This document shows, piece after piece, positions 8,891 through 64,000 of a DNA stretch of 64,000 nucleotides. The DNA is from Chthonomonadales bacterium. GTDB lineage: Bacteria > Armatimonadota > Chthonomonadetes > Chthonomonadales > CAJBBX01. Made by a program: the position numbers and the translations under genes. Position 1 is the stretch's first letter. Each line of letters starts with the position of its first letter. The stretch covers positions 1 through 64,000 of the forward strand of contig JADLGO010000031.1 of NCBI GenBank assembly GCA_020849275.1, in the 5' to 3' direction. The notes under the pieces were generated by a model, which was given only the letters and a program-made list of their open reading frames with translations, was not told the DNA's origin and ran no database searches.

Positions 8891-10769
8891 GGTCTTCGGC
8901 CTGGTGAAGCCCGCCGTCGACGCCCACACGCTGGGCGTACGCGCCGCTCAACAGCTTCTCGAGGAGTGCGGCTACCGCGCCGTCGTGGGCGGCGAGCGCG
9001 TGGCCGAGGCGGCCGACGAGCCGTCACTGCCCGGCAGCGCCGAGACGCTGGAGCGCTGGGTGCGCTCCGAGCGCATCACGCGTCTGGGCTTCAGCTACCG
9101 GCTGGATCCGGACGAAGGGGCCGAGAAGCTCGGGCGAGTTCTGCACGGACTGGCCGAGCGCGGGCTCCTGGCGGAGCAGGGCGGCCCGGTGGGCGCCGTC
9201 TTCTTCGCCGGACTGCCGCCGGCCTGCGAGCGGGTGGCGCGCGAGCACGCCGGGCGCGTGGAGGTGTTCGCCGGCGACGAGACGCCGGGGGAGACCCTGC
9301 GCAAGCTGGGCGTGCCGGCCGAGCGCGTGCCCGCCGACATGGCGGAGCATGTGGCCTACGACGAGGACCGGATGGCCTTCGCGCGGGGCCTTCTGGCCGC
9401 CGAGAAGCCGCACGCCGCGCGGCCTGTCGACCGCGCCGGCTACCCGGAGTTCGGCACGGGCCGCGACTCGGCCGTCGCCCGCATTGCGGACGCCGCGGAG
9501 CGCGGCCTGCCTCCGCTGATGCGCGCCCACGTGGGGCCCTATCTGCCGGACCGCGAGGCCGCCGTCGCCCTCTTCCTGGACTGGACGCGGCGCCTGGCCG
9601 AGAGCGGCTACCTGGACGTGCTCTCCATCGGGAGCTCGCAGCTCACCCAGTCGAGCTTCGGCGAGGAATGGGGCGAGCGCCCGAACGGCGGCGGCGTGCC
9701 CATCAACTCGGAGGCCGAGTACGCCGCCGTGCGCGAGGCCGCGCGGCCGATGCTGACGCGGACCTACGCCGGCACTCGCGACGTGCCCGGCCTGGCCCGG
9801 GTGCACGAGCGCGCGCTCAACATCGCCTGGCACGCGCTCTCGCTCTGGTGGTTCTCGCGCATCGACGGCCGCGGCCCCAACGACGTGCGCCGCAACCTGA
9901 CGGAGCACCTGGAGACGCTGCGCTTCATTGCGCGGACCGGCAAGCCGTTCGAGCCGAACATCCCGCACCACTTCGCCTTTCGCGGGGCCGATGATGTGAC
10001 GTATGTGGTCTCGGCCGTGCTGGCCGCGCGCGCTGCGAAGGCGGCCGGCGTGCGCCACATGTTCCTGCAGAACATGCTCAACACCCCACGGCCGACCTGG
10101 GGCGTTCAGGACCTGGCCCGGTCGCGGGCCATGCTACGCCTGACGCGCGAGCTGGAGGATGGCGCCTTCCGCGTCTACCTGGAGACCCGCGCCGGCCTGG
10201 ACTACCTATCGCACGACCTGGACCTGGCGCGCGCGCAGCTCGCCGCCGTGAGCGCGATGATGGACGACATCGAGCCAGACAACCCGGCCAGCCCCGCCAT
10301 CGTGCACGTGGTCAGCTACTCAGAGGGTTCCCGTCTCGCGGACCCGGCCGTCGTGGACGAGAGTGTGCGTATCACCCGTGCGGCCATCGACGAGTACCGC
10401 CGCCTACGCGCGGCCGGCCAGATGCCGCACATGGGCCGTCATCCGGAGGTCATGGCGCGCACCGAGACGCTGGTCCGCGACGCTCGGGCTGTGCTGCGCG
10501 AGATCGATTCATCGATCGCCGCGCCGGCCAGCGCGGCGGGGCTCTACATGATCTTCGCCGCCGGCTTCCTGCCGGTGCCGGACCTCTGGGCCTGTCGCGG
10601 GGAGTTCCCGCACGCCGTGGCCTGGCGCACGCGCTTCTCGCGCGGCGGAGTCCGCGTGGTGGACGAGCGCGGGGAGCCGGTCGGCGCCGCCGAGCGTGCC
10701 GCCGCCGCGGGCGAGATCGCCCGCGGTGAGCGGAGCGCCCTGGGCGCGGCCGGCGGCGGGCGCAGGTAG
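8865..10769 (+). CDS. Cobalamin-binding, methylaspartate-mutase-like protein
   Basis: A 634-residue protein. Near the N-terminus it has D19-A-H21-T-L-G24, matching the DxHxxG signature by which B12 mutases bind cobalamin through His. A possible SxL equivalent is GFSYRL around residue 77. The rest resembles the glutamate mutase E (epsilon) subunit barrel. A B12-binding segment and a catalytic barrel in one chain would make it a single-chain mutase-like enzyme acting on an amino acid carbon skeleton. It lies between an opine-type dehydrogenase and asparagine synthase, so the product may be an unusual amino acid. The ATG at 8865 follows GAGGAGG. Confidence 0.7.
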   Translation: MALPLRPHEVFGLVKPAVDAHTLGVRAAQQLLEECGYRAVVGGERVAEAADEPSLPGSAETLERWVRSERITRLGFSYRLDPDEGAEKLGRVLHGLAERGLLAEQGGPVGAVFFAGLPPACERVAREHAGRVEVFAGDETPGETLRKLGVPAERVPADMAEHVAYDEDRMAFARGLLAAEKPHAARPVDRAGYPEFGTGRDSAVARIADAAERGLPPLMRAHVGPYLPDREAAVALFLDWTRRLAESGYLDVLSIGSSQLTQSSFGEEWGERPNGGGVPINSEAEYAAVREAARPMLTRTYAGTRDVPGLARVHERALNIAWHALSLWWFSRIDGRGPNDVRRNLTEHLETLRFIARTGKPFEPNIPHHFAFRGADDVTYVVSAVLAARAAKAAGVRHMFLQNMLNTPRPTWGVQDLARSRAMLRLTRELEDGAFRVYLETRAGLDYLSHDLDLARAQLAAVSAMMDDIEPDNPASPAIVHVVSYSEGSRLADPAVVDESVRITRAAIDEYRRLRAAGQMPHMGRHPEVMARTETLVRDARAVLREIDSSIAAPASAAGLYMIFAAGFLPVPDLWACRGEFPHAVAWRTRFSRGGVRVVDERGEPVGAAERAAAAGEIARGERSALGAAGGGRR

Positions 10770-10786
10770 CGAAAGGAGCAGCCTGC

Positions 10787-12274
10787 ATGTGTGGGATCGT
10801 GGGAGCGTGCGGAACCGACGGCATGAAGGCCGTCGAGGAGATGCTCGACGCCGTGGGACACCGGGGCCCCGATGGACGCGGGACCTGCATCAACGGCCGC
10901 TACGCTCTCGGGCACACTCGCCTGGCGATCGTCGACATCGCGGGCGGGGCACAGCCGATGCACGACGACCGAACGAACGCCGACATCGCCTACAACGGCG
11001 AGATCTACAACCACCGGGGCCTGCGCAGACTCCTGCCGTGCCATGAGTTCCGCACCAACAGCGACACGGAGACGCTGCTGGCGCTCGAGGGCTCCGGACT
11101 GGAGCGGGCCGCGTGGCTACGCGGGATCGAGGGTATGTTCGCGTTCGCCATCGCCTCGCCGAAGGGCATCCTGCTGGCACGCGACCCGCTGGGCATCAAG
11201 CCGCTCTACATCGGGCGGCGGGGCAAGCGGCTGGTCTTCGCGTCGGAGATCAAGGCGATCGCGCGCGCGGCCGACACCATCGCGGCGTTCCCGCCGGGCC
11301 ACGTCTACAGCAGCGGGCAGGGCGCGCAGCCCTACTTCGAGCTGGCGCCGGGGCCGCCGGAGGTTCGCTCGCCGGAGGCGGCGCGCCGGGGCGTGCTACG
11401 GCGTCTGGTCCGATCGGTGCGAGCCAGCATGACGGCGGACGTGCCGGTGGGAGCGTTTCTGAGCGGCGGGCTGGACAGCAGCCTGATCGCTTCCATCGCC
11501 ACGAAGCTCCAGCGCGGCCTGCACACCTTCGCGGTCGGGGTCGAGGGATCGCGCGACCTGGAGTATGCCCGGCGCATGGCGGGGTTCCTGCACACCCGGC
11601 ACCACGAGCGGACCTTCACGACCGAGGAGGCGCTGCGGGCGCTCCCCGAGGTCATCTATGCGCTCGAGTCGTTCGACTGCGCGCTCGTGCGCAGCGCCGT
11701 GCCGAGCTACTTCCTGGCAGGCCTGGCGAGCCGGTTCGTGAAGGTTGCGCTCTCCGGCGAGGGCGCCGACGAGCTCTTCGCGGGTTACGACTACCTGCGC
11801 CCCATGCCGCCGCGTGAGTTGGGCCAGGAGCTGGCGCACATCACGCGGGAACTGCACAACACGAACCTGCAGCGCTGCGACCGCATGGGAATGGCGCACG
11901 GGCTCGAGGTCCGCGTGCCGTTCCTGGACGACCCGGAGCTGCTGCGCTTCGCCTTCAGTCTCTCCACCGACGTGAAGATGCGCGGCTCGCGGCGCATCAG
12001 CAAGTGGGTACTGCGCCTGGCGGCGCGGGGCCTGGTGCCGCGCGAGATCGCGTGCCGGCCGAAGGAGAAGTTTGCGCTGGGCGCCGGCATCGCCGAGCAT
12101 CTTGCGCGCCACGCCGAGTCGAGCATCGGCGACACGGCCTTCGAGGCCGAGCGCGAGGTCGGCGATGGGTTCGTGCTGCGCTCCAAGGAGGAGCTGCTCT
12201 ACTACCGCATCTTCCGGCGCCAGTTCCCGACCGAGAAGGTGCTGCCTTTGATCGGCCGCAGCCGCAGCCTGTGA
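10787..12274 (+). CDS. asnB: Asparagine synthase (glutamine-hydrolysing)
   Basis: A 495-residue class II amidotransferase. Cys2 (MCGIVGACG) is the N-terminal nucleophile that releases ammonia from glutamine. The synthetase domain carries the PPi loop SGGLDSS at residues 226-232 and the later GEGADELFAGYDYL segment. It normally amidates aspartate using ATP. It starts 17 nt after the cobalamin-type gene, as part of the same operon. It is shorter than E. coli AsnB (about 550 residues) and could act on a modified amino acid made by its partners. Confidence 0.9.
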   Translation: MCGIVGACGTDGMKAVEEMLDAVGHRGPDGRGTCINGRYALGHTRLAIVDIAGGAQPMHDDRTNADIAYNGEIYNHRGLRRLLPCHEFRTNSDTETLLALEGSGLERAAWLRGIEGMFAFAIASPKGILLARDPLGIKPLYIGRRGKRLVFASEIKAIARAADTIAAFPPGHVYSSGQGAQPYFELAPGPPEVRSPEAARRGVLRRLVRSVRASMTADVPVGAFLSGGLDSSLIASIATKLQRGLHTFAVGVEGSRDLEYARRMAGFLHTRHHERTFTTEEALRALPEVIYALESFDCALVRSAVPSYFLAGLASRFVKVALSGEGADELFAGYDYLRPMPPRELGQELAHITRELHNTNLQRCDRMGMAHGLEVRVPFLDDPELLRFAFSLSTDVKMRGSRRISKWVLRLAARGLVPREIACRPKEKFALGAGIAEHLARHAESSIGDTAFEAEREVGDGFVLRSKEELLYYRIFRRQFPTEKVLPLIGRSRSL

Positions 12275-12341
12275 GCGCAAGGGCGCCCCGGCGCCCGCCG
12301 CGAGGAGCCGCCTCGGGGCGGCTCCAGGGAGAGGGTCGGCG

Positions 12342-12746
12342 ATGAACTCCGTTCTGAACGAGATCGAGGCGGGCGCGAACGGGCTGCTCTACACCTCCGA
12401 GACCGACAGCCCGGTGGAGCCGTTTCTGTGGCCGCAAGCGCAGGTGGGCGACGGCCAGTTGACCGCCGCCCGCCTGCTGAAGCTATCCGGGCAGCCGGCC
12501 GACACGCGCGTGGAGCGGCTGGACTTCGCGCGCTTCTTCGAGCCGCTCGGGCGCATCGAGGAATGGTACGGCGCCGAGGAGCGCGCGGTCGCCCTCCGCT
12601 ATGCCGTCCTTCGCGAGCTGCTCCAGGCCCGCCTCACCGACCTGGCCGTCTTCGCCGTTGGCGACACCCGCCGCCACCTCTACGTCGTCGGACGGACGCC
12701 GGCCGGCGATCTGGCCGGTCTGCACACCGTCGCGGTGGAGACCTGA
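12342..12746 (+). CDS. nuiA: NuiA-type nuclease inhibitor
   Basis: A 134-residue protein that aligns by eye along its whole length with the Anabaena nuclease inhibitor NuiA: GLLYTSETDSPVEPFLW near the start, a central DFARFF...WYGAEE segment and the end VGRTPAGDLAGLHTVAVET. The C-terminal Val-Glu-Thr is kept; from memory the last Thr of NuiA reaches into the nuclease active site. The protein has no signal peptide and would protect the cytosol from a NucA-type nuclease. Such a nuclease is encoded 1.2 kb away (13985-14836). Confidence 0.85.
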   Translation: MNSVLNEIEAGANGLLYTSETDSPVEPFLWPQAQVGDGQLTAARLLKLSGQPADTRVERLDFARFFEPLGRIEEWYGAEERAVALRYAVLRELLQARLTDLAVFAVGDTRRHLYVVGRTPAGDLAGLHTVAVET

Positions 12747-12759
12747 CCCCGCGCGCCGC

Positions 12760-13944
12760 TCAGGCGGCGGGCTCGGCCAGCAGGCGATCGAGGGCGGCAC
12801 GGAAAACGGCGTACTCCCGCTCGCCCTCCCAGCGGTAGCGCACGCCTCCCCGGCCGTCGATCAGCACCGAAACCGGCACGTCGTGGATGTCGCCGAACGC
12901 CTTCAGCAGGCGCCTCGTGGCAAGAGCTTGCCGATAGTTCAGCCCGCGCTGCTGGCACCATGCGATGAGCTCCGCCGGCCGCCGGCTCTCCGCGACGGCG
13001 ACGCCCACGATCTCCACTCCCATCGCGCCGTACTCACGGCTCAGTCGCGCCAGGTCCGCCGTCTCCGCCACGCACGGGCCGCACCAGGTCCCCCAGAAGT
13101 TGAGCAGTAGCAGCGCGCCACCGCGATCGCGCGCCTCGACGATCTGCCCGCGCACATCCCGGAACGCGACGTCGGGCGCGGAGTCGACGCGCTGGGGCCG
13201 CACCGGCGACCGGTTGGAATAGCGCTCGGACACGCGCCACTTCGGCGCCTCGCCCGCCCACCAGGCGCGCCAGCGGTTGAGCGCGGCGCGTCGCCTGGCG
13301 GGCGGGTCGGCCCGGCGCGACCGCCAGGGGTTGCCGGTCAGTTCGCGCAGCGCCGACATCGCCATCGTAGGCACCACGATGTCCGGGTCATCCAGCGCGC
13401 GGATCAGCGCGGGCACGGCCCGGCGGTCGACGACCTTGCGGCCTCGGCCGGCTCGCATCGCGAGCTGGGTCGCGGCGGCCTCGCGGATCCAGGTGTCCTC
13501 GTCGCGCAGGGCGGTCAGAAGCAGCAGCAGACCGCGCTCCTGGTCGACCTCCGGCAGCACCTCGACGGCGCGCTGCCGTACGATCGAGGCGTTGTCGGCG
13601 AAGGCCGCCTCCAGGGCCGCGGCCGCCGCCGACCCCTTCTGACGGCCGAGCGCGTCGACCGCGGCGTAGCGCAGTCCCGGGCTGGGATCAAGCGCGTAGC
13701 GCGCCAGCAGCGGCGTCCACTCGCCGGGCGGCGTGCGATCCAGCACCTCCTGGAGGGCGGCCGGCGCCTCCTCGTGGTTGCCGCGCAGCGCCGGCTCTCT
13801 TTCGTCCTCCGCTATGTGGTAGCGGACCGCGGCGGCGAGCGCGACGAGGACGACGGCGGCCGTCAGCAGCCAGGGCGTCCGAGACGATCGAGCAGCGGCC
13901 GCCGGTTCGGGAGGGGTCTCGGCGGGCGGAGGGGTCCCGGTCAT
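12760..13944 (-). CDS. HEAT-repeat / TlpA-like thioredoxin fusion
   Basis: A 394-residue protein. It has one membrane helix near residues 25-42, then HEAT/PBS-type helical repeats to about residue 210 (for example GLRYAAVDALG, VRQRAVEVLPE, WIREAAATQLA). It ends in a TlpA-type thioredoxin domain with WCGPC (FWGTWCGPCVAE). It should be anchored with both domains outside the membrane; the repeats may bind client proteins for the redox domain. It is the last gene of a minus-strand group behind the DUF1080 and NucA-type genes. The ATG is preceded by AAGGAG. Confidence 0.85.
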   Translation of the reverse strand: MTGTPPPAETPPEPAAAARSSRTPWLLTAAVVLVALAAAVRYHIAEDEREPALRGNHEEAPAALQEVLDRTPPGEWTPLLARYALDPSPGLRYAAVDALGRQKGSAAAAALEAAFADNASIVRQRAVEVLPEVDQERGLLLLLTALRDEDTWIREAAATQLAMRAGRGRKVVDRRAVPALIRALDDPDIVVPTMAMSALRELTGNPWRSRRADPPARRRAALNRWRAWWAGEAPKWRVSERYSNRSPVRPQRVDSAPDVAFRDVRGQIVEARDRGGALLLLNFWGTWCGPCVAETADLARLSREYGAMGVEIVGVAVAESRRPAELIAWCQQRGLNYRQALATRRLLKAFGDIHDVPVSVLIDGRGGVRYRWEGEREYAVFRAALDRLLAEPAA

Positions 13945-13984
13945 GGCGGTTCGTCTCCTTCCGCCGCGCGGCGGACCGCGGCGC

Positions 13985-14836
13985 TCAGCCGCGGTCCACG
14001 CGGCGCTTCAGGGCAGACCGGGTGGGCTCCGGCACGGCGGTGAGCAGGTGAAGCCCGGTGCCGCGCTCCACCGCGCCGACGCTCACGCGGAAGGAGCGCC
14101 ACCCCTCGCCCTCGATGGAGCTCTCGTTGGGCATCCACACGGCGATCACGCGCGTTCGAGCGTCGATGGCGGCCGGCGCCTCGACGCCGCGGTCCGGCAG
14201 GGCCACAACCACCTTCCAGAAGGCCTCCGGCACCGTGACGCGCCCACCCGCGATGGCGCCGGACTCTCCGGCGGTCCCGGCAACGATGAAGAGCACCTGG
14301 CCTCGCGCGACGAGCTCGCGGCAGTACTCCTCGAGGTCGCGCCAAGGCCCCTGATTGTTGCCGGGCGCCTGCGGGGCGATGTTGGTCATGTAGAAGGTGG
14401 CGCGGTTGTCCTCCTCGCTCGCGGTGCGGTCGCCGGAAGGGCAGAGGTGGCCGCGGTCGTAGCCGCTACCGGTGTAGTCGCGGGGCACGATGCGAGTGAA
14501 GCCCTCTGGCAGGTCCGGGTCGGGCTGAAAACGGCCGCGCTCCACGTCGCCCAGGTCCTCTCGCGCCAGCCGCCAGCTCGCCCAGTTGGGCCGGCCGAGC
14601 GCGTCGTTGTAGGAGACGGTGTACTGCGTGCGCTCGATGAGGAACCGCCGCCGGTCGGAACCGTCGGGCTCCGCCGGGCCAGGCATGCCGAGGGGCGCCC
14701 CGGCCACGAGCTCGGTCGACGCCGCCGGTCCGGCCTCAACCGGAGGGGCGGGCGCCGTGGCGGGGCGCGGCGCGCAGCCACCCGACAGCCAGAGGACGGC
14801 GGCCAGCAGAGCGAGCAGGCGAGGCGGCAGGCGCAT
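13985..14836 (-). CDS. nucA: Secreted DNA/RNA non-specific endonuclease, NucA type
   Basis: A 283-residue nuclease of the beta-beta-alpha metal family. The signature is GYDRGHLCPSGDRT with H130 as general base, followed by N161 (GNNQGPW) as metal ligand and E169. Both spacings match Anabaena NucA. The N-terminus is a signal sequence ending in LSGGC, a weak lipobox, so the enzyme is probably exported and perhaps lipid-anchored. It may degrade extracellular DNA as nutrient. It lies between DUF1080 and the HEAT-thioredoxin gene, and its likely inhibitor is encoded at 12342. Confidence 0.9.
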   Translation of the reverse strand: MRLPPRLLALLAAVLWLSGGCAPRPATAPAPPVEAGPAASTELVAGAPLGMPGPAEPDGSDRRRFLIERTQYTVSYNDALGRPNWASWRLAREDLGDVERGRFQPDPDLPEGFTRIVPRDYTGSGYDRGHLCPSGDRTASEEDNRATFYMTNIAPQAPGNNQGPWRDLEEYCRELVARGQVLFIVAGTAGESGAIAGGRVTVPEAFWKVVVALPDRGVEAPAAIDARTRVIAVWMPNESSIEGEGWRSFRVSVGAVERGTGLHLLTAVPEPTRSALKRRVDRG

Positions 14837-56781: not shown

Positions 56782-57930
56782 ATGCGCAGGATCAAGGCCG
56801 CCATCATCGGCACGGGCTTCATCGGCCCGGCCCACGTCGAGGCCGCGCGCCGCCTCGGCTTCGTCGAGATGGCGGCCCTCTGTGAGAATGGCCAGGAGCT
56901 GGCCGAGGCCAAGGCGAGCCAGTTGCACATCGATCGGGCCTACGGCAGCGTCGACGCCCTGCTCGCCGACCCCGAGATCGAGGTCGTGCACAACTGCACG
57001 CCCAACCACCTGCACTTCGACATCAGCTCTCGCATCCTCGACGCCGGCAAGGCGGTCATCTCCGAGAAGCCGCTCGCCATGACGACCGGCGAGTCGCGCA
57101 AGCTCGTGGAGAAGGCCGAGAAGGCCGGCATCGTCAACGCGATCGACTTCAACTACCGCTACTACCCGCTCGTGCAGCAGGCCCGGTCGATGGTGGCGCG
57201 CGGTGACCTGGGCGATGTGTTCCACGCCAACGGCAGCTACACGCAGGACTGGCTTTACCTGGCGACCGACTGGAACTGGCGCCTGGTGCCCGAGCTCAGC
57301 GGGGAGTCGCGCGCCGTGGCCGACGTGGGCTCGCACTGGTGCGACTGCATCCAGTTCGTCAGCGGACGCCGGATCACCGACGTCTACGGCCACCTGCACA
57401 CCATTCACAGGGAGCGCATGAAGCCGAAGAAGGAGGTCGAGACCTACTCCGGCAAGCTGCTCACCGCCGCCGACTACGAGCCCGTGCCGATCCACACCGA
57501 GGACTACGCGACGGTCCTGTTCCGGCTCGACAACGGCGCGGTCGGCTCGTTCTCGGTCTCCCAGTGCTTCGCGGGCCGCAAGAACCGGCTCTTCTACGAG
57601 CTGTCCGGCTCCCGGTGCTCGCTGGTGTGGGACCAGGAGCGGCCCAACGAGATGCTGGTGGGCTACCGTGAGAAGCCCAACGAGCTGCTCGTGAAGGATC
57701 CCTCGCTGCTGACGCCGGAGGCGCGCCTGTATGCGCACTTCCCCGGTGGCCACCCGGAGGCCTACCCGGACGGGCTCAAGAACTTCCTCTGGCGCGTCTA
57801 CACCTACATCGCCGAGCCGCGCGAGACGGTCGACTTCAGCACCTTCCGCGACGGCCACAACGAGCTGGCCATCTGCGAGGCGGTTCTGGCGAGCGCGGGG
57901 AGCGGCAAGTGGGAACCGGTGGCCTACTGA
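56782..57930 (+). CDS. Gfo/Idh/MocA-family oxidoreductase
   Basis: A 382-residue protein with an N-terminal Rossmann fold (IGTGFIG, residues 9-15), the EKPLAMT motif with its conserved Lys, and a C-terminal barrel-like domain. Conserved HxxD-type catalytic residues fall in VADVGSHWCDC. Members oxidise sugars or inositol with NAD(P). The CRISPR array begins 12 nt after its stop codon. Confidence 0.92.
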   Translation: MRRIKAAIIGTGFIGPAHVEAARRLGFVEMAALCENGQELAEAKASQLHIDRAYGSVDALLADPEIEVVHNCTPNHLHFDISSRILDAGKAVISEKPLAMTTGESRKLVEKAEKAGIVNAIDFNYRYYPLVQQARSMVARGDLGDVFHANGSYTQDWLYLATDWNWRLVPELSGESRAVADVGSHWCDCIQFVSGRRITDVYGHLHTIHRERMKPKKEVETYSGKLLTAADYEPVPIHTEDYATVLFRLDNGAVGSFSVSQCFAGRKNRLFYELSGSRCSLVWDQERPNEMLVGYREKPNELLVKDPSLLTPEARLYAHFPGGHPEAYPDGLKNFLWRVYTYIAEPRETVDFSTFRDGHNELAICEAVLASAGSGKWEPVAY

Positions 57931-57941
57931 GTTGGGGGGCG

Positions 57942-59176
57942 GTTGGGGGAAGCGGACAGACACCTATCTGACACAGCCTTGGAGCTCGGAGATTCAGTCT
58001 CGATCCAGTTGGGGGAAGCGGACAGACACCTATCTGACACAGCCCCGCCACAATGCGGTTCTGGGCGCGTAGCGTTGGGGGAAGCGGACAGACACCTATC
58101 TGACACAGCCTCACGCGCGCCACGCGTCGCACGGCAGAGGTTGGGGGAAGCGGACAGACACCTATCTGACACAGCCTCAAACACGCGCGACATGTCTCGC
58201 TGGAGGTTGGGGGAAGCGGACAGACACCTATCTGACACAGCCCCCGCGTTCGCGGAGCCCGCCCTCCCCGGTTGGGGGAAGCGGACAGACAACTATCTGA
58301 CACAGCGCGCGCCCGCGCCGGTCCCCGCGCTTCCGGTTGGGGGAAGCGGACAGACACCTATCTGACACAGCCGCTAGAGGCATGACATCCCCGTGCGTAA
58401 TGTTGGGGGAAGCGGACAGACACCTATCTGACACAGCCGGCCACTCTCCAGTAGCCACTCTCCAGTAGCCAAGAAATACAGGTTGGGGGAAGCGGACAGA
58501 CACCTATCTGACACAGCCACGATGTCGTATACTCCACGCTGGGGGAGGTTGGGGGAAGCGGACAGACACCTATCTGACACAGCCGTGGGCGAGCGTGATC
58601 CCCGTGTCACCCGGTTGGGGGAAGCGGACAGACACCTATCTGACACAGCTATCTGCCGGCAAAGGCGGTGCGCGAGGTGGTTGGGGGAAGCGGACAGACA
58701 CCTATCTGACACAGCCGGCACCGGATCCTCCGTCCCGCGACGACAGTTGGGGGAAGCGGACAGACACCTATCTGACACAGCGGCCGGTCTGTCGTGTCCG
58801 TCGTCCTCGCCGTTGGGGGAAGCGGACAGACACCTATCTGACACAGCCAGTCGCGCCAGCTCCTCGTCGCTGTACAGTTGGGGGAAGCGGACAGACACCT
58901 ATCTGACACAGCTCATGGCCTTCGATACATGGAACGAGGTGAGTTGGGGGAAGCGGACAGACACCTATCTGACACAGCCACATGCGCGCGGACTGGATAC
59001 GGTAATCGGTTGGGGGAAGCGGACAGACACCTATCTGACACAGCACTCGGCGCCCGATGCGCTGTTCCCGGCCCGTTGGGGGAAGCGGACAGACACCTAT
59101 CTGACACAGCCTGAACATAGGCGTAGAGGCAGGAGGAAGAGTTGGGGGAAGCGGACAGACACCTATCTGACACAGC
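57942..59176 (+). CRISPR. Type II-C CRISPR array, 19 repeats, 18 spacers
   Basis: Repeat length 36 nt, starting GTTGGGGGAAGC and ending CTATCTGACACAGC. Starts: 57942, 58008, 58074, 58140, 58206, 58271, 58336, 58402, 58482, 58548, 58614, 58680, 58746, 58812, 58877, 58943, 59009, 59075, 59141. Spacers are 30 nt, except spacers 5, 6 and 14 (29 nt) and spacer 8 (44 nt). All repeats are identical except repeat 6 (58271), which has an A for C in the ACCTATC part. The plus-strand reading is supported by a tracrRNA anti-repeat that pairs better with that strand. The array converges with the cas genes and ends 61 nt before the cas2 stop codon. Confidence 0.98.
58441..58468. repeat. 14-bp tandem duplication inside CRISPR spacer 8
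   Basis: The block CCACTCTCCAGTAG occurs twice in a row (58441-58454 and 58455-58468). Removing one copy returns the 44-nt spacer to the standard 30 nt, so it was probably duplicated after acquisition. Confidence 0.95.
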
Positions 59177-59226
59177 CTTCCGCGTCCTTCTCCTTCGTGG
59201 ATCCGCCTCGGCCACGCTCGGCGCTC

Positions 59227-59262
59227 GCCCGAGCAGCTCAGAAGAAACTGAGCTGCTCGGGC
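59227..59262. terminator. Bidirectional terminator of CRISPR array and cas operon
   Basis: A perfect 15-bp stem (59227-59241 with 59248-59262), 6-nt loop AAGAAA. It covers the last codons and the stop of cas2 (minus strand) and follows the array (plus strand), which continues into GGTTTCTC. It can therefore end both converging transcripts. Confidence 0.75.
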
Positions 59263-59579
59263 GGTTTCTCTACTGGCGTCGGCCGCTTTCCGAGGAAGAT
59301 CTGCATCCTCCCGAACTGCAGGTCGGTGATCTGCAGGATGCGCACCTCGCCCGCCGGCGGCAGCGCGCGCGCCACCCGCGCGGCGTGCACCTTCGCGTTC
59401 TCGTCCGAGGGGCAGGGGCGCGCGTAGACGCTGAACTGCAGCATGGTGAAGCCATCATCCCGCAGCGCGTTGCGGAAGCGCGCGTAGCTGCGGCGCGCTT
59501 GCTTCGTGTCCACGGGAAGATCGAACATCGCGATGACCCACACGGCCCGCACTCCTCCGTAGATCATCGGCCGGGGCAC
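59238..59579 (-). CDS. cas2: CRISPR-associated protein Cas2
   Basis: A 113-residue Cas2. The first beta strand is VWVIAMFDLPVDTKQ with the family Asp, followed by RRSYARFRNALRDDGFTMLQFSVY and LQITDLQFGRMQIF. Two Cas1 dimers and one Cas2 dimer form the spacer integrase. The start overlaps the cas1 end by 16 nt, and the last codons lie in the terminator stem. It is the last gene of the cas9-cas1-cas2 operon. Confidence 0.95.
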   Translation of the reverse strand: MPRPMIYGGVRAVWVIAMFDLPVDTKQARRSYARFRNALRDDGFTMLQFSVYARPCPSDENAKVHAARVARALPPAGEVRILQITDLQFGRMQIFLGKRPTPVEKPPEQLSFF

Positions 59580-60448
59580 GCCAGCTTCCTCCCCTCGCCG
59601 AGCAGGCAGGCACGCACCCGCGCGGCATAGAGCTCCAGTGCCGCCATCATCGGGTAGCGCTTCCCATCGAAGGAGACCTCCTCGCCGAGGGCGCCGAGCA
59701 TCGCCCGCTTCGCCTGCGGGGTCAGCTCCTCCGGTGGCTCGTGCTCGCGCCCGTAGGCGTGCGCCCGAGCGTCCACCAGCGGCCGCAGCGGCTCCATCAG
59801 GTCGTCGGCCAGCGAGAACGCGTCGTACTGGTTGTGGTGGTGGATGCCGAGGGCCGGGTGCAGCCCGGCCCCCACGACCGCGCGGGCCACGGCCGCGCGG
59901 ACCACCGCGTACCCGTAGTTGAGCATCGCGTTGAGCCCCGCGGCCGCTCGGTCCCGCACGAACATCTCGCCGAATAGCCGCTCGAAATAGATCCGCGCCG
60001 CCCGGGCCTCCACGTTGTCCGGGTCGCCGCTCCGCACGAACGGCGCCAGGCCGCCCACCCGCCCGTCGTCGCCGAGCAGGTCCCGGAGCAGCCGGCTCTG
60101 CTCGCCGATCTTGGCGACCACGACCGCCTGCCAGAGGCGCTTGCGGCGCGGCTCCCCCACGGCGATCTGCTCGCGGAGGGTTCGCGCGTGCAGGGTGTTC
60201 GCCGCGAAGGGCGCCAGCAGCCCGGCCGGCATGTGCCGTCCGTCACAGACCACCACCGCCACGTTCCCGGCCGCGCAGGCGGCCAGGAGCGGCACGGTGG
60301 CCGTGGCCTGCGCGTAGTCGAGAACGAGCACGCCCAGGTCATCCAGCGGCACGCGCGCCTCGGGCTCGCCCGCCCGCGCGACCACCAGTTGCCGGTCGTG
60401 GTATGAGAGGGCCGCCGGGCTCGACACCTCCACGATCCGGCCGCTCAC
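59564..60448 (-). CDS. cas1: CRISPR integrase Cas1
   Basis: A 294-residue Cas1. Metal-binding residues by alignment with type II Cas1 are E147 (NVEARAARIYF), H204 (LGIHHHN) and E219 (DLMEPLRP). The GTG at 60448 has AGGAG upstream and overlaps the cas9 stop (GTGA); an ATG at 60493 would add a Gly/Ala tail inside cas9. It inserts new spacers together with Cas2. The length suits type II-C, and no csn2 or cas4 is present. Confidence 0.95.
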   Translation of the reverse strand: MSGRIVEVSSPAALSYHDRQLVVARAGEPEARVPLDDLGVLVLDYAQATATVPLLAACAAGNVAVVVCDGRHMPAGLLAPFAANTLHARTLREQIAVGEPRRKRLWQAVVVAKIGEQSRLLRDLLGDDGRVGGLAPFVRSGDPDNVEARAARIYFERLFGEMFVRDRAAAGLNAMLNYGYAVVRAAVARAVVGAGLHPALGIHHHNQYDAFSLADDLMEPLRPLVDARAHAYGREHEPPEELTPQAKRAMLGALGEEVSFDGKRYPMMAALELYAARVRACLLGEGRKLACPGR

Positions 60449-63400
60449 GGCGCCGGCTCCTGCCCCACCTGCTCGCCGAGCGGGTCCAGGCACACGCGGC
60501 GCGCCAGATGCCGCAGGTCTCCCTTGCCTCTGACTCGGACCCGCCTGGCGCCATCGGCGATGGCATCCTCTGGCGGAGCGAGTACGATCTCAAACCCCTG
60601 CTGCGCCACCCGCGAGATCGCCGCGACGCGCTTGAGGCCGGGAGTCTCCCCCGTCCACTCGACCAGGTCGTTCTTGCACAGCGCCATCACGTAGCGCCAG
60701 CCCGCCCGGTGCGCGCGGATCAGCGGCTCGCCGTCGCGCGCGCGCCGCGCCGCCTCGATCATCGGAACGATCTCGACCTCCCTCGCTCGATCGCCGCCCC
60801 GCCCGGCGGTCTCAGCCTCCCAGATCACCGCGTGGTGGTTGCTCTCCAGGTCGTACGCCTTCGTCGGCTGCCCGTTCTCGTCCATCCATACGAGCTGCTT
60901 GTCGACGACGACGCATCGTCGCACGCGCTCCCTCTCGGCGGCCGGAAGCGCCGCGAGCGCGGCCTCCACCTCGGCGCGCGTCGGAGGCTTCCGCGCCGTC
61001 TCCTTGTGCAGCGGTCCGCCGACGCCGCGCGTGGGCTGGTGCACCACGGGGCACGCATTCACCGCGCGCCGCACGTCGTCGCGCAGCGTAGCCCACGGCT
61101 TCGGCCTGGGGATGTCGCGGCGCGGTCTCCCCTCCTCCTGCTCCTTCAGCCAGGCCGAGACGCGCTGGAGCGTGCCGCGGTCCACGAGGGCGGTGATGAT
61201 GGCGTCCACGGCGTGGTGTCGATGGTCGTGGCGCGGCTTCGGCGTCTTCTTGACGGGTCTCTGCCTCCACGCGTCCAGCTTCGCCTGCTCCTGCTCGCGC
61301 ACCGGCACGCACTCGCCGAGCTCCCACGCGCCGCGCAGCAGGTCTGTCAGACGCCCGGTCGAGACCGTCACCTCCACCCCCAGCGCCTTGACGGCGCGGA
61401 GGATGACGCGGGACACGTAGCGCGTGTCGCTGAGGGCGCGGTTGGTGAACTCCTCGTTGCTCCACTCCTTGCGCAGGACGGGCTGGCGCTTGGCGTACGG
61501 CATCGAGCGCAGCCCGTTCACGTACTGCTCGATGGCCCCCCACCCGGCGGTCGCGCCGTAGGCCTCGTAGGGGGTCTGCCTGCCCTTGCGATGGGTGTTC
61601 TCGTCGCGCGGGCAGATCGTGGTGTTCATCCAGGAGTCATCGTAGCAGCGGCTACGGGGCACGATGTGGTCGACGTCGTAGTCGTCCACCAGCTGCTGGA
61701 TGGTGACGATCTGGTCGGGGAGGTAGGGGCAGCGGCATCCCGCCTCCTGCCAGAGCCGCACTTTCCGCACGTTCTGCTCGTTGTGGCCAAGGGGAAGCTG
61801 GTTCTCCTCGAGCAGCCTGCGGGCGGCGTCGCGCTCGCGGGCGTTCCTGTCCTGATCCTGCCACATCCGCTCGCGCTGGGCGTTGGTTCGAGAGACGTCG
61901 CGGGGGAGCTCGATCCGGATGCGGTCGGGCTTGCCGTGGCGGTCGATGACGGCGTTGATGACCCGGCGCGTCGCCTCGACGGCGCGCTGGACCATCGGGT
62001 TGCGCAGGTCCGGCATCGGGGGAAGGCGATCGGTCGCGAAGGCGGAAGGCTCGGTCGACTCGCCCTCCTGGCGGAACCCCGCCTGCACGCACGCCTGCCA
62101 GTAGTCGCAGCCCTGCCGCAGCCAGGGCTCCAGCGCGCGCAGGACGGCCGAGCAGTGGTTGGCATAGCCCTCCGGGAGCTCGGCGGAGGCGAGCGCCGCC
62201 ATCTCGGCATCCGTGAGTCCGAAGTCGCGTCGAAGGCCGGGCGCGACGTCCGCAAGGCTCCGGCACGTCACCAGGCGGGTGACCAGGTCCTCCTGGGCGC
62301 AGGACGAGAGCGCGTCCCACCGGTCCGACAGCGCCTTGCGCAGGACGCTCGCGGTGCGGTTGCCGCGCAGGTTGCGGCGGCCCCGGTTGGCCGAGCCCGA
62401 GCGGCCCTTGCGCCCCTGCGGCTCGCGCGGCTCGTCGCTGAAGCGCGCATCGGCGAGCGCCAGCGCATCGCGGGCCTGGTTCCAGGTCAGGTGGTCGCAG
62501 CGGTCCAGCTTCTCGGCGAGCAGGCACACCTCCGCGCCGGTCAGGCGTCGCGGCGCCGCTCCCGGAGTCTGGACCCAAAGGGTGGCAAGGTACTGCAGGA
62601 TGACGGAGCGCTGCGCCAGGAGCGAGGCGCGGGGAGCGCAGCGGCGGCGAGGGCGAAACTCGCAGCGGCGGACGAGGTGCGCGGCCGAGCGGAGGGGCCG
62701 CTGATCGAACATGCAGGCCCGGATCTCGCTTTGCAGGGCGGGCGTGAGGACCTGCGGATGGTGGGGGGACTGCGCGGCCCAGAGGCGGTCGAACTCCTCC
62801 TCGAACATGGCGCGATCGGCGCGATAGCCGAGGGCGTCACGTTCGATGCCCCTGGCCTTGAGCTTCTTGAGCTTCTCGGCCCCCGCGCCGCGCACGGGCT
62901 CGCGCAGGGCCAGGCGGTCGGCGTAGAACTCGCCGATGGTGCGGGCCTCCCCCGCCTTCAGGCGCTCGCGCACTTCCGAGATGCGCTGCAGCATGCCGCC
63001 CTCATCGGCGCGCCGCTGGCGCTCCGCCGCGCCGACCTCCTCGGCCTCCTCCGGGGCTGGCCTCTCCTCGGGCACGGCGGCGACCACGTCGACGGAGCGC
63101 ATGGGGACGCCGCGCAGCTTGAGCAGGGCCGTGCTGAGGTAGCCGCGGTGGCGGGCGATGTGGAAGAGAGCCCGGCCGAGCTCGTGAAGCGTGAGCGGGT
63201 CGTCGAGTCCGCGCTTTCGGAGCGCGTACGGATGGCGCCCACGGCCGTCGGCGTCCGTGTGGGCGCTGAAGAGGGCCTGGCGGGGGGTCGTGTCGGCGGG
63301 AAGCATCCCGTGGGCGAGCAGCAGGCGCAGGAGCGCGTCGCGCCGCTCCCGGCGCCGCCGCAGGTTCCTCCTCATGCGGCGCTTGTCGCCGCGTTGTCGT

Positions 63401-63549
63401 CGGTGAGACTCGAAGAGCCCGTCCTCCAGGTCTCCGGCCTCCGGGAACACGTACACGCCCGCCCGCAGGCCGGGCAGGTCGGCTTCGACGTCCTCCACGA
63501 GCGCCCATCCGATGCTCTGGGCGCCGAGGTCCAGTCCGAGTGTCTTCAT
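60445..63549 (-). CDS. cas9: CRISPR-associated endonuclease Cas9 (type II-C)
   Basis: A 1034-residue Cas9, short as in type II-C. RuvC-I D7 (LGLDLGAQSIGWAL), Arg-rich bridge helix (residues 49-72), RuvC-II E547 (IRIELPRD), HNH D627-H628 and N651 with the same spacing as NmeCas9 (D587-H588, N611), and RuvC-III H779/D782 (HRHHAVDA). All nuclease residues are present, so it should cut both target strands. The PAM-interacting C-terminal domain (residues ~850-1034) is not predictable. It is first in the operon, with a GGGAGG-like ribosome binding site. Confidence 0.97.
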   Translation of the reverse strand: MKTLGLDLGAQSIGWALVEDVEADLPGLRAGVYVFPEAGDLEDGLFESHRRQRGDKRRMRRNLRRRRERRDALLRLLLAHGMLPADTTPRQALFSAHTDADGRGRHPYALRKRGLDDPLTLHELGRALFHIARHRGYLSTALLKLRGVPMRSVDVVAAVPEERPAPEEAEEVGAAERQRRADEGGMLQRISEVRERLKAGEARTIGEFYADRLALREPVRGAGAEKLKKLKARGIERDALGYRADRAMFEEEFDRLWAAQSPHHPQVLTPALQSEIRACMFDQRPLRSAAHLVRRCEFRPRRRCAPRASLLAQRSVILQYLATLWVQTPGAAPRRLTGAEVCLLAEKLDRCDHLTWNQARDALALADARFSDEPREPQGRKGRSGSANRGRRNLRGNRTASVLRKALSDRWDALSSCAQEDLVTRLVTCRSLADVAPGLRRDFGLTDAEMAALASAELPEGYANHCSAVLRALEPWLRQGCDYWQACVQAGFRQEGESTEPSAFATDRLPPMPDLRNPMVQRAVEATRRVINAVIDRHGKPDRIRIELPRDVSRTNAQRERMWQDQDRNARERDAARRLLEENQLPLGHNEQNVRKVRLWQEAGCRCPYLPDQIVTIQQLVDDYDVDHIVPRSRCYDDSWMNTTICPRDENTHRKGRQTPYEAYGATAGWGAIEQYVNGLRSMPYAKRQPVLRKEWSNEEFTNRALSDTRYVSRVILRAVKALGVEVTVSTGRLTDLLRGAWELGECVPVREQEQAKLDAWRQRPVKKTPKPRHDHRHHAVDAIITALVDRGTLQRVSAWLKEQEEGRPRRDIPRPKPWATLRDDVRRAVNACPVVHQPTRGVGGPLHKETARKPPTRAEVEAALAALPAAERERVRRCVVVDKQLVWMDENGQPTKAYDLESNHHAVIWEAETAGRGGDRAREVEIVPMIEAARRARDGEPLIRAHRAGWRYVMALCKNDLVEWTGETPGLKRVAAISRVAQQGFEIVLAPPEDAIADGARRVRVRGKGDLRHLARRVCLDPLGEQVGQEPAP

Positions 63550-63591
63550 GGGTTCGGTCCCTCCCGTTGCCGAGATTGCGCCGTATGCCCC

Positions 63592-63621
63592 TTGACGGAA
63601 CCGGCTCAGCCGTTGTATAGT
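63592..63621 (+). promoter_or_regulatory. tracrRNA promoter
   Basis: TTGACG (63592-63597), 18 bp, TATAGT (63616-63621), read away from cas9. Transcription should start near 63628, exactly at the anti-repeat. Confidence 0.8.
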
Positions 63622-63627
63622 GACTAT

Positions 63628-63755
63628 CGTCAGATAGGTGCCTGCCCGTTTCCTTTAACAAGGAGGAAACTCCGCAGGTCTGCCCTCACAGGCAGCCATC
63701 AGGCCCCAACACGGTCGCGAGCAGCCCCCGCCATCGCGGGGGCTGCTCGTCTGTG
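63628..63755 (+). ncRNA. tracrRNA
   Basis: The anti-repeat at 63629-63659 can pair with 31 nt of the plus-strand CRISPR repeat: 25 Watson-Crick, 4 G-U and 2 A-C mismatches. It begins GTCAGATAGGTG and ends CTTTAAC. Downstream come a small stem (63680-63684 with 63691-63695) and a 13-bp hairpin. Starting at the anti-repeat, it would need no 5' trimming. The 3' end is estimated. Confidence 0.85.
63719..63748 (+). terminator. tracrRNA terminator-like hairpin
   Basis: A perfect 13-bp stem (63719-63731 with 63736-63748), 4-nt loop CATC. The T tract after it is weak. Confidence 0.7.
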
Positions 63756-63826
63756 CGCGAACGGGTCGCGGCGCTGTATGGCCTCTAGCGAGCGGGACCG
63801 CGACGCCCGCACCCGCCGGCGCGGCC

Positions 63827-63880
63827 GCGCCCTGGCGCTCTCTCGCGCCCTGGCGCTCTCTCGCGCCCTGGCGCTCTCTC
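63827..63880. repeat. 18-bp tandem repeat, three copies
   Basis: The unit GCGCCCTGGCGCTCTCTC occurs three times in exact tandem (63827-63844, 63845-63862, 63863-63880). It lies upstream of the last gene and has no recognised role. Confidence 0.95.
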
Positions 63881-63903
63881 GCGCGGCGCGAACGGGAGGG
63901 AAC

Positions 63904-64000
63904 ATGATCTGGGCGAACCTGCTGCACCTGGGCTTCAACATGTGGGCCGACCGCGACGACGGCGACCCGCGCCACGCCCACATCACCGCGCGGCCCTACC
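63904..64000 (+). CDS. Start of an unidentified gene, cut by the window end
   Basis: ATG at 63904 with GGGAGGG just upstream. The 32 visible residues start MIWANLLHLGFNMWADRDD. The start pattern resembles secreted or glycosidase-like proteins of this group, but the reading is too short to name. Confidence 0.55.
   Translation, partial: MIWANLLHLGFNMWADRDDGDPRHAHITARPY

What the first reader, a model, noticed from the sequence alone, without database searches (positions are those of the whole stretch)
57942..63755. Complete, compact type II-C CRISPR-Cas9 locus with a divergent tracrRNA
All parts are present: 1034-residue Cas9 with every RuvC and HNH catalytic residue, Cas1, Cas2, a 19-repeat array and a tracrRNA gene with its own promoter. 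The tracrRNA sits upstream of cas9, transcribed away from it, and its anti-repeat begins at the predicted start site. The Cas9 is short and from a lineage rarely sampled, so PAM and guide scaffold may be new.
Basis: partly seen in the sequence, partly recalled or inferred. Interest (0 to 1): 0.8.

Follow-up and report, generated by a model that had tools for sequence, protein, structure and literature searches.

The report
Type II-C CRISPR-Cas9, promoterless repeats
This is a real, complete-looking bacterial CRISPR-Cas9 immune system of the common II-C kind, in a little-studied bacterial phylum; its one odd point is that its repeats have lost the tiny promoters that nearly all such arrays use to make their guide RNAs.

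Summary
Confirmed. 57942-63755 holds a II-C CRISPR-Cas9 locus: cas9 (1034 aa, all RuvC/HNH residues), cas1, cas2, a 19-repeat/18-spacer array and a tracrRNA read away from cas9 from a sigma-70-type promoter. The genome is an Armatimonadota MAG. Nearest Cas9s (49-51% identity) belong to the same family and share the tracrRNA layout, so the layout is ordinary. The enzyme is not unusually small for its clade. tracrRNA folding, covariation and cognate repeat:anti-repeat pairing support a working guide scaffold. The PAM could not be inferred: no protospacer was found.

Its array starts 11 bp behind an oxidoreductase gene with no terminator between them, so crRNAs probably come from a read-through precursor cut by RNase III (inferred). 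Solo copies of the repeat, two with the array's right flank, are scattered elsewhere in the genome. One spacer targets the same coding sequence as a spacer in the genome's second (III-A-associated) array; all four differences are synonymous.

Verdict: a new member of a known kind, with one uncommon feature worth a transcript test.

The parts
56782..57930 (+). Gfo/Idh/MocA-family oxidoreductase; ends 11 bp before the first repeat, same strand as the array; proposed source of read-through transcription
   Evidence: Pfam PF01408/PF22725; no terminator between it and the array
57942..59176 (+). CRISPR array: 19 repeats of 36 nt, 18 spacers; crRNA strand is +
   Evidence: strand fixed by pairing with the tracrRNA anti-repeat
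59177..59224 (+). right flank between last repeat and terminator; leader candidate, as II-C arrays grow at this end; similar sequence occurs elsewhere in the genome
   Evidence: 3'-end acquisition from PMC12638026 and PMC12080349
59225..59264 (+). predicted intrinsic terminator (17-bp stem, TTTCTCT) behind the array, overlapping the 3' end of cas2
   Evidence: 1 found, 1.5 expected by chance, so weak alone; similar hairpin and T-run behind the array of G027
59238..59579 (-). cas2
   Evidence: TIGR01573, PF09827, PADLOC Cas2_II
59564..60493 (-). cas1, type II form; likely start 60448
   Evidence: TIGR03639 265 bits, PADLOC Cas1_II
60445..63549 (-). cas9, 1034 aa
   Evidence: TIGR01865 496 bits; HNH_4, RuvC_III, Cas9_a; AlphaFold model matches II-C Cas9 structures
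63592..63621 (+). tracrRNA promoter TTGACG-18-TATAGT
   Evidence: comparable sites before relatives' tracrRNAs
63629..63659 (+). tracrRNA anti-repeat
63662..63697 (+). tracrRNA nexus hairpin (63662-63673) and second hairpin (63677-63697)
   Evidence: fold; both-side changes at 7 of 11 pairs in 4 sequences, 0/500 shuffles
63719..63755 (+). tracrRNA terminal hairpin (stem 63719-63748), weak T-run
   Evidence: relatives have the hairpin, mostly with clear T-runs

Best explanation
It is a type II-C CRISPR-Cas9 adaptive immune system. Cas1-Cas2 add spacers to the array, probably at the cas2-side (3') end. The tracrRNA is made from its own promoter, pairs with the repeat part of array transcripts, and the duplex is cut by RNase III and loaded into Cas9, which then cuts matching phage DNA next to an unknown PAM. 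Shown from sequence: all genes and catalytic residues, the array, the tracrRNA with promoter, a coevolved repeat:anti-repeat duplex and conserved scaffold hairpins, and one spacer whose target is shared with the cell's other CRISPR array. Inferred: expression, processing, cleavage. Because the repeat has lost the embedded -10 box, I think (about 55%) that crRNAs come from a longer precursor, most likely read-through from the oxidoreductase gene 11 bp upstream, rather than from one promoter per repeat.
For: Family matches over cut-offs. Tree: Cas9 in a 4-member clade of its own family (100*), inside a 10-row Armatimonadota clade (99*), among II-C-like Cas9s. Best fold matches Nme1Cas9, ThermoCas9, GeoCas9, HpaCas9. 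tracrRNA fold z = -12, hairpin covariation, each tested repeat pairs best with its own tracrRNA. Repeat survey: TANNNT at the 3' end in 64/68 repeats, absent here; no alternative promoter of 9/12 or better in or before the array. RNase III present. Spacer 15 matches a spacer of another array at 26/30 with all differences synonymous.
Against: No expression data. Only one phylum-level set of relatives was compared closely. Consensus promoter scans say little for GC-rich, uncultured bacteria, so a cryptic repeat promoter is possible; other II-C arrays lacking the canonical -10 exist (F. columnare, PMC8092290). The tracrRNA terminator has a weak T-run. No viral protospacer was found.
Confidence: 0.9

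Rival explanations
1. Ordinary II-C expression: each repeat still starts its own crRNA, from a promoter the consensus does not recognise (another sigma factor, or a degenerate -10).
For: Per-repeat promoters are the norm in studied II-C arrays (PMC3656092, PMC12080349); F. columnare repeats also lack the canonical -10 yet may start within repeats (PMC8092290).
Against: The first and last T of the -10 box are both changed in all 19 repeats, while all nine compared Armatimonadota relatives keep them; this genome's tracrRNA uses a standard sigma-70-like promoter.
Confidence: 0.3
2. The array is silent or decaying: adaptation and Cas9 genes persist, but the guides are not made.
For: Loss of the repeat promoter; no visible promoter before the array.
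Against: 18 of 19 repeats are identical and cas9/cas1/cas2 are intact. The change is in every repeat, so the array has been copied since. The anti-repeat pairs best with the changed repeat: T-A to C-G at repeat position 31.
Confidence: 0.12
3. A different type II subtype (II-A, II-B, II-D) or a new one.
For: Weak similarity to the Cas9d model (122 bits).
Against: Cas9d cut-off is 375 bits; no csn2 or cas4 among the locus ORFs; the genome's only Cas4 is on another contig; tree and fold place it with II-C.
Confidence: 0.02

Closest known systems
Type II-C CRISPR-Cas9 of Neisseria meningitidis (Nme1Cas9) and Campylobacter jejuni
   Same: cas9-cas1-cas2 without csn2/cas4, 36-nt repeats, about 30-nt spacers, tracrRNA with repeat duplex and hairpins, same Cas9 fold
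   Different: Only about 15-22% identity over the structural alignment; repeats lack the -10 box (GGTAAAAT in C. jejuni, PMC3656092); host is Armatimonadota
GeoCas9 / ThermoCas9 (8jtj, 9ar4)
   Same: Best sequence matches among solved structures (E 8e-60 and 2e-59)
   Different: Distant relatives, aligned in separate stretches; PAM-contacting C-terminal part not aligned by sequence
Uncharacterised Cas9 loci of the same Armatimonadota family (G037, G027, G029)
   Same: 49-51% Cas9 identity, same tracrRNA position, orientation and hairpins
   Different: Where a repeat is visible (G027, G029) it ends GATACACT and keeps the -10 box

Membership tests
Type II-C CRISPR-Cas | Cas9 with RuvC and HNH catalytic residues | tested here: met
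Type II-C CRISPR-Cas | Operon of cas9, cas1, cas2 without csn2 or cas4 | tested here: met
   the single Cas4 is on contig C23. csn2 was not searched genome-wide
Type II-C CRISPR-Cas | tracrRNA with anti-repeat to the array's repeat | tested here: met
Type II-C CRISPR-Cas | Cas9 groups with II-C Cas9s | tested here: met
   tree of 119 II-C-like Cas9s (FastTree, no II-A/II-B outgroup); II-C structures rank first
Type II-C CRISPR-Cas | -10 box in each repeat (usual hallmark, not part of the subtype definition) | tested here: not met
   CACAGC in place of TANNNT, which 64 of 68 repeats have
Type II-C CRISPR-Cas | New spacers added at the 3' (cas2-side) end | tested here: inconclusive
   In this array both end repeats are perfect; in two relatives the 5' repeat is the altered one, which fits
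Type II-C CRISPR-Cas | tracrRNA/crRNA-guided DNA cleavage with a PAM | not testable with these tools
   needs biochemistry; no protospacer found
Type II-D (Cas9d) | Score over the Cas9d model cut-off | tested here: not met
   122.5 bits against 375
Type II-B | cas4 in the locus | tested here: not met
   and the locus ORFs

The most novel reading that the evidence does not exclude
A II-C system that has given up one-promoter-per-repeat and depends on read-through from a metabolic gene plus RNase III, while solo copies of the same repeat behind other genes let the tracrRNA turn ordinary mRNA ends into Cas9 guides (a built-in form of the noncanonical crRNAs known from C. jejuni, PMC8224270).
Probability: 0.08. 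Interest if true: 0.65.

Novelty: new member of a known kind. Interest (0 to 1): 0.3.

Why it matters
It adds a Cas9 about 50% identical to its nearest (uncharacterised) relatives, with a matched tracrRNA, usable for a PAM and guide-scaffold survey. The lost repeat promoter is a natural test of whether II-C immunity needs one promoter per repeat, which is the usual explanation for why these arrays can grow at their 3' end and do with little processing.

Tried and rejected
PAM from protospacers: joined spacers against phages gave only E about 9 hits; one degenerate and three exact spacer patterns in viral contigs gave nothing except one 18-nt match that does not extend to the full spacer; across 291 Armatimonadota genomes only weak short hits besides the array itself and the C29 spacer. 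The C29 hit looked like a self-target but is a spacer in another CRISPR array, so it gives no PAM. Single-protein searches of genome and viral collections found nothing; the alignment query worked. Rfam has no match to the tracrRNA. A first anti-repeat search over whole loci was misled by array remnants and was replaced by direct location near cas9. An excess of C as first spacer base (13/18) is not shared by relatives in any clear way and was not used. The idea that the solo repeats always follow stop codons was weakened: clear for two of four.

Full report
Observation. The locus is as described. ORFs for cas9 (60445-63549, -), cas1 and cas2 match the Cas9, type II Cas1 and Cas2 models above their curated cut-offs. 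Cas9 keeps D7, E547, D627/H628/N651 and H778/H779/D782, most of them invariant or nearly invariant in alignments of relatives. The array has 19 repeats at 57942-59176, 18 of them identical. The 44-nt spacer 8 is a normal 30-nt spacer with an internal 14-bp tandem duplication (CCACTCTCCAGTAG twice), read directly from the sequence.

Where it is. The window is part of a 4.8-Mb, 99.9% complete MAG. A relative in its phylum, G146, has a contig of the same length as DKKT01000038.1 (34369 bases), titled Chthonomonas sp. UBA6659, with the same Cas9, so the phylum is Armatimonadota. 31 of 291 genomes searched in the phylum carry a related Cas9; three family members are 49-51% identical and the other compared ones 37% or less in the full-length alignment. 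A FastTree of 119 Cas9s puts the window protein in a family-only clade (100*) inside an Armatimonadota-only clade of 10 (99*). No II-A or II-B outgroup was included. The AlphaFold model (mean pLDDT 78, pTM 0.49, so domain placement is unsure) is closest to Nme1Cas9, ThermoCas9, HpaCas9 and GeoCas9. Relatives in the phylum mostly have open frames of about 1016-1171 aa, so 1034 aa is ordinary.

tracrRNA. The promoter TTGACG-18-TATAGT (10 of 12 positions) is the only sigma-70-like site found in 57800-64000, with 0.3 expected. Shortly behind it, G63629 is the first base that pairs with the repeat. The repeat joined to the tracrRNA folds as a long duplex, a GGAG/CUCC nexus hairpin, a second hairpin and a terminal hairpin, z = -12 against shuffles. 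In four family tracrRNAs the two middle hairpins show both-side changes at 7 of 11 pairs, none of 500 shuffles reaching that, and sliding the partners destroys the pairing. Four sequences is a small set. In a six-by-six test every repeat pairs most strongly with its own tracrRNA (window -48.4 kcal/mol). Relatives carry the tracrRNA in the same divergent position next to cas9.

The odd point. In studied II-C arrays each repeat ends in a -10 box that starts the next crRNA (GGTAAAAT in C. jejuni, PMC3656092; PMC12080349). Among 68 distinct repeats collected here, 64 end in TANNNT; in 36-nt repeats this motif sits at position 31 in 62 of 66 and in no more than 4 at any other position. All nine other Armatimonadota repeats end TACACT or TACAAT. 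The window repeat ends CACAGC, in all 19 copies; it is one of four exceptions, the others being in Flavobacterium (L090) and two viral contigs (L130, L133). Four further repeats could not be oriented by the rule used and were left out. F. columnare repeats are also reported to lack the usual box (PMC8092290), so the state is uncommon, not unique. At repeat position 31 the change T to C comes with A to G in the anti-repeat, which argues against plain decay, though one pair is modest evidence and a G is also a common start nucleotide.

Consequence (inferred). No promoter-like site with 9 or more of 12 matches lies in or just before the array. The array begins 11 bp after the stop of a Gfo/Idh/MocA oxidoreductase on the same strand, with no predicted terminator between. 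In PMC12080349, II-C arrays have on average a 247-nt upstream intergenic region. RNase III is encoded. The simplest model is one read-through precursor cut by RNase III with the tracrRNA. I give this step about 55%, a cryptic repeat promoter 30%, and a silent array 12%.

Evidence of use. Spacer 15 matches, at 26 of 30, the last (leader-distal) spacer of a 74-repeat array on contig C29 of the same genome. All four differences are third-codon changes in one frame (VMAFDTWNEV), so both arrays sampled related coding sequences. That array lies next to Cas2e, Cas1e, Cas6e, a CARF-RelE protein, Csm4 and Csm3, i.e. a III-A system with I-E-like adaptation and processing genes. No protospacer with flanks was found, so the PAM stays unknown.

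Dispersed repeats. The 36-nt repeat occurs elsewhere in the genome: C12 (1 mismatch), C44 (1 mismatch, plus a second copy with 5 mismatches 66 bp on, enclosing a 30-nt spacer), C1 (3) and C54 (3). The C12 and C1 copies are followed by the same sequence as the right flank of the main array (91% over 81 bp, 89% over 71 bp, repeat included), and a piece of that flank stands alone at C12:20731-20782. Other family genomes show no such dispersal; the only clear hits are array copies in G027. Orphan mini-arrays or copies of the repeat-plus-leader unit are the plain reading; how they spread is unexplained.

Conclusion. A genuine, probably functional II-C system from an under-sampled phylum: a new member of a known kind. 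Its value is a test case for promoter loss in a II-C array and a source of an uncharacterised Cas9/tracrRNA pair.

Noticed in passing
G000 contigs C12:31749-31784(-), C44:85264-85365(+), C1 near 85957-85992(-), C54 near 85293-85328(-): Solo or paired copies of the window's CRISPR repeat scattered in the genome; two carry the array's right flank; the C12 and C44 copies start at a gene's stop codon.
   Followed up: partly
L151 (G000:C29:14000-33900), array 9697-14178: Second CRISPR locus: 74 I-E-like repeats beside Cas2e, Cas1e, Cas6e, CARF-RelE, Csm4 and Csm3, i.e. type III-A interference with I-E-type adaptation genes. One spacer shares its target with spacer 15 of the window array.
   Followed up: partly
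window 58438-58481: Spacer 8 is 44 nt long because of a 14-bp tandem duplication inside a 30-nt spacer.
   Followed up: yes
window 63826-63883: Three head-to-tail copies of GCCCTGGCGCTCTCTCGC just downstream of the tracrRNA.
   Followed up: no
L121-L140; L130 on a 309-kb viral contig: Cas9 relatives on contigs classed as viral, several with CRISPR arrays; the L130 repeat also lacks the TANNNT end.
   Followed up: no
L036 (G110), last repeat before the cas2 side: Only the 3'-terminal repeat ends TACAGC while the rest end TACACT: perhaps an early stage of the change that is complete in the window array.
   Followed up: no
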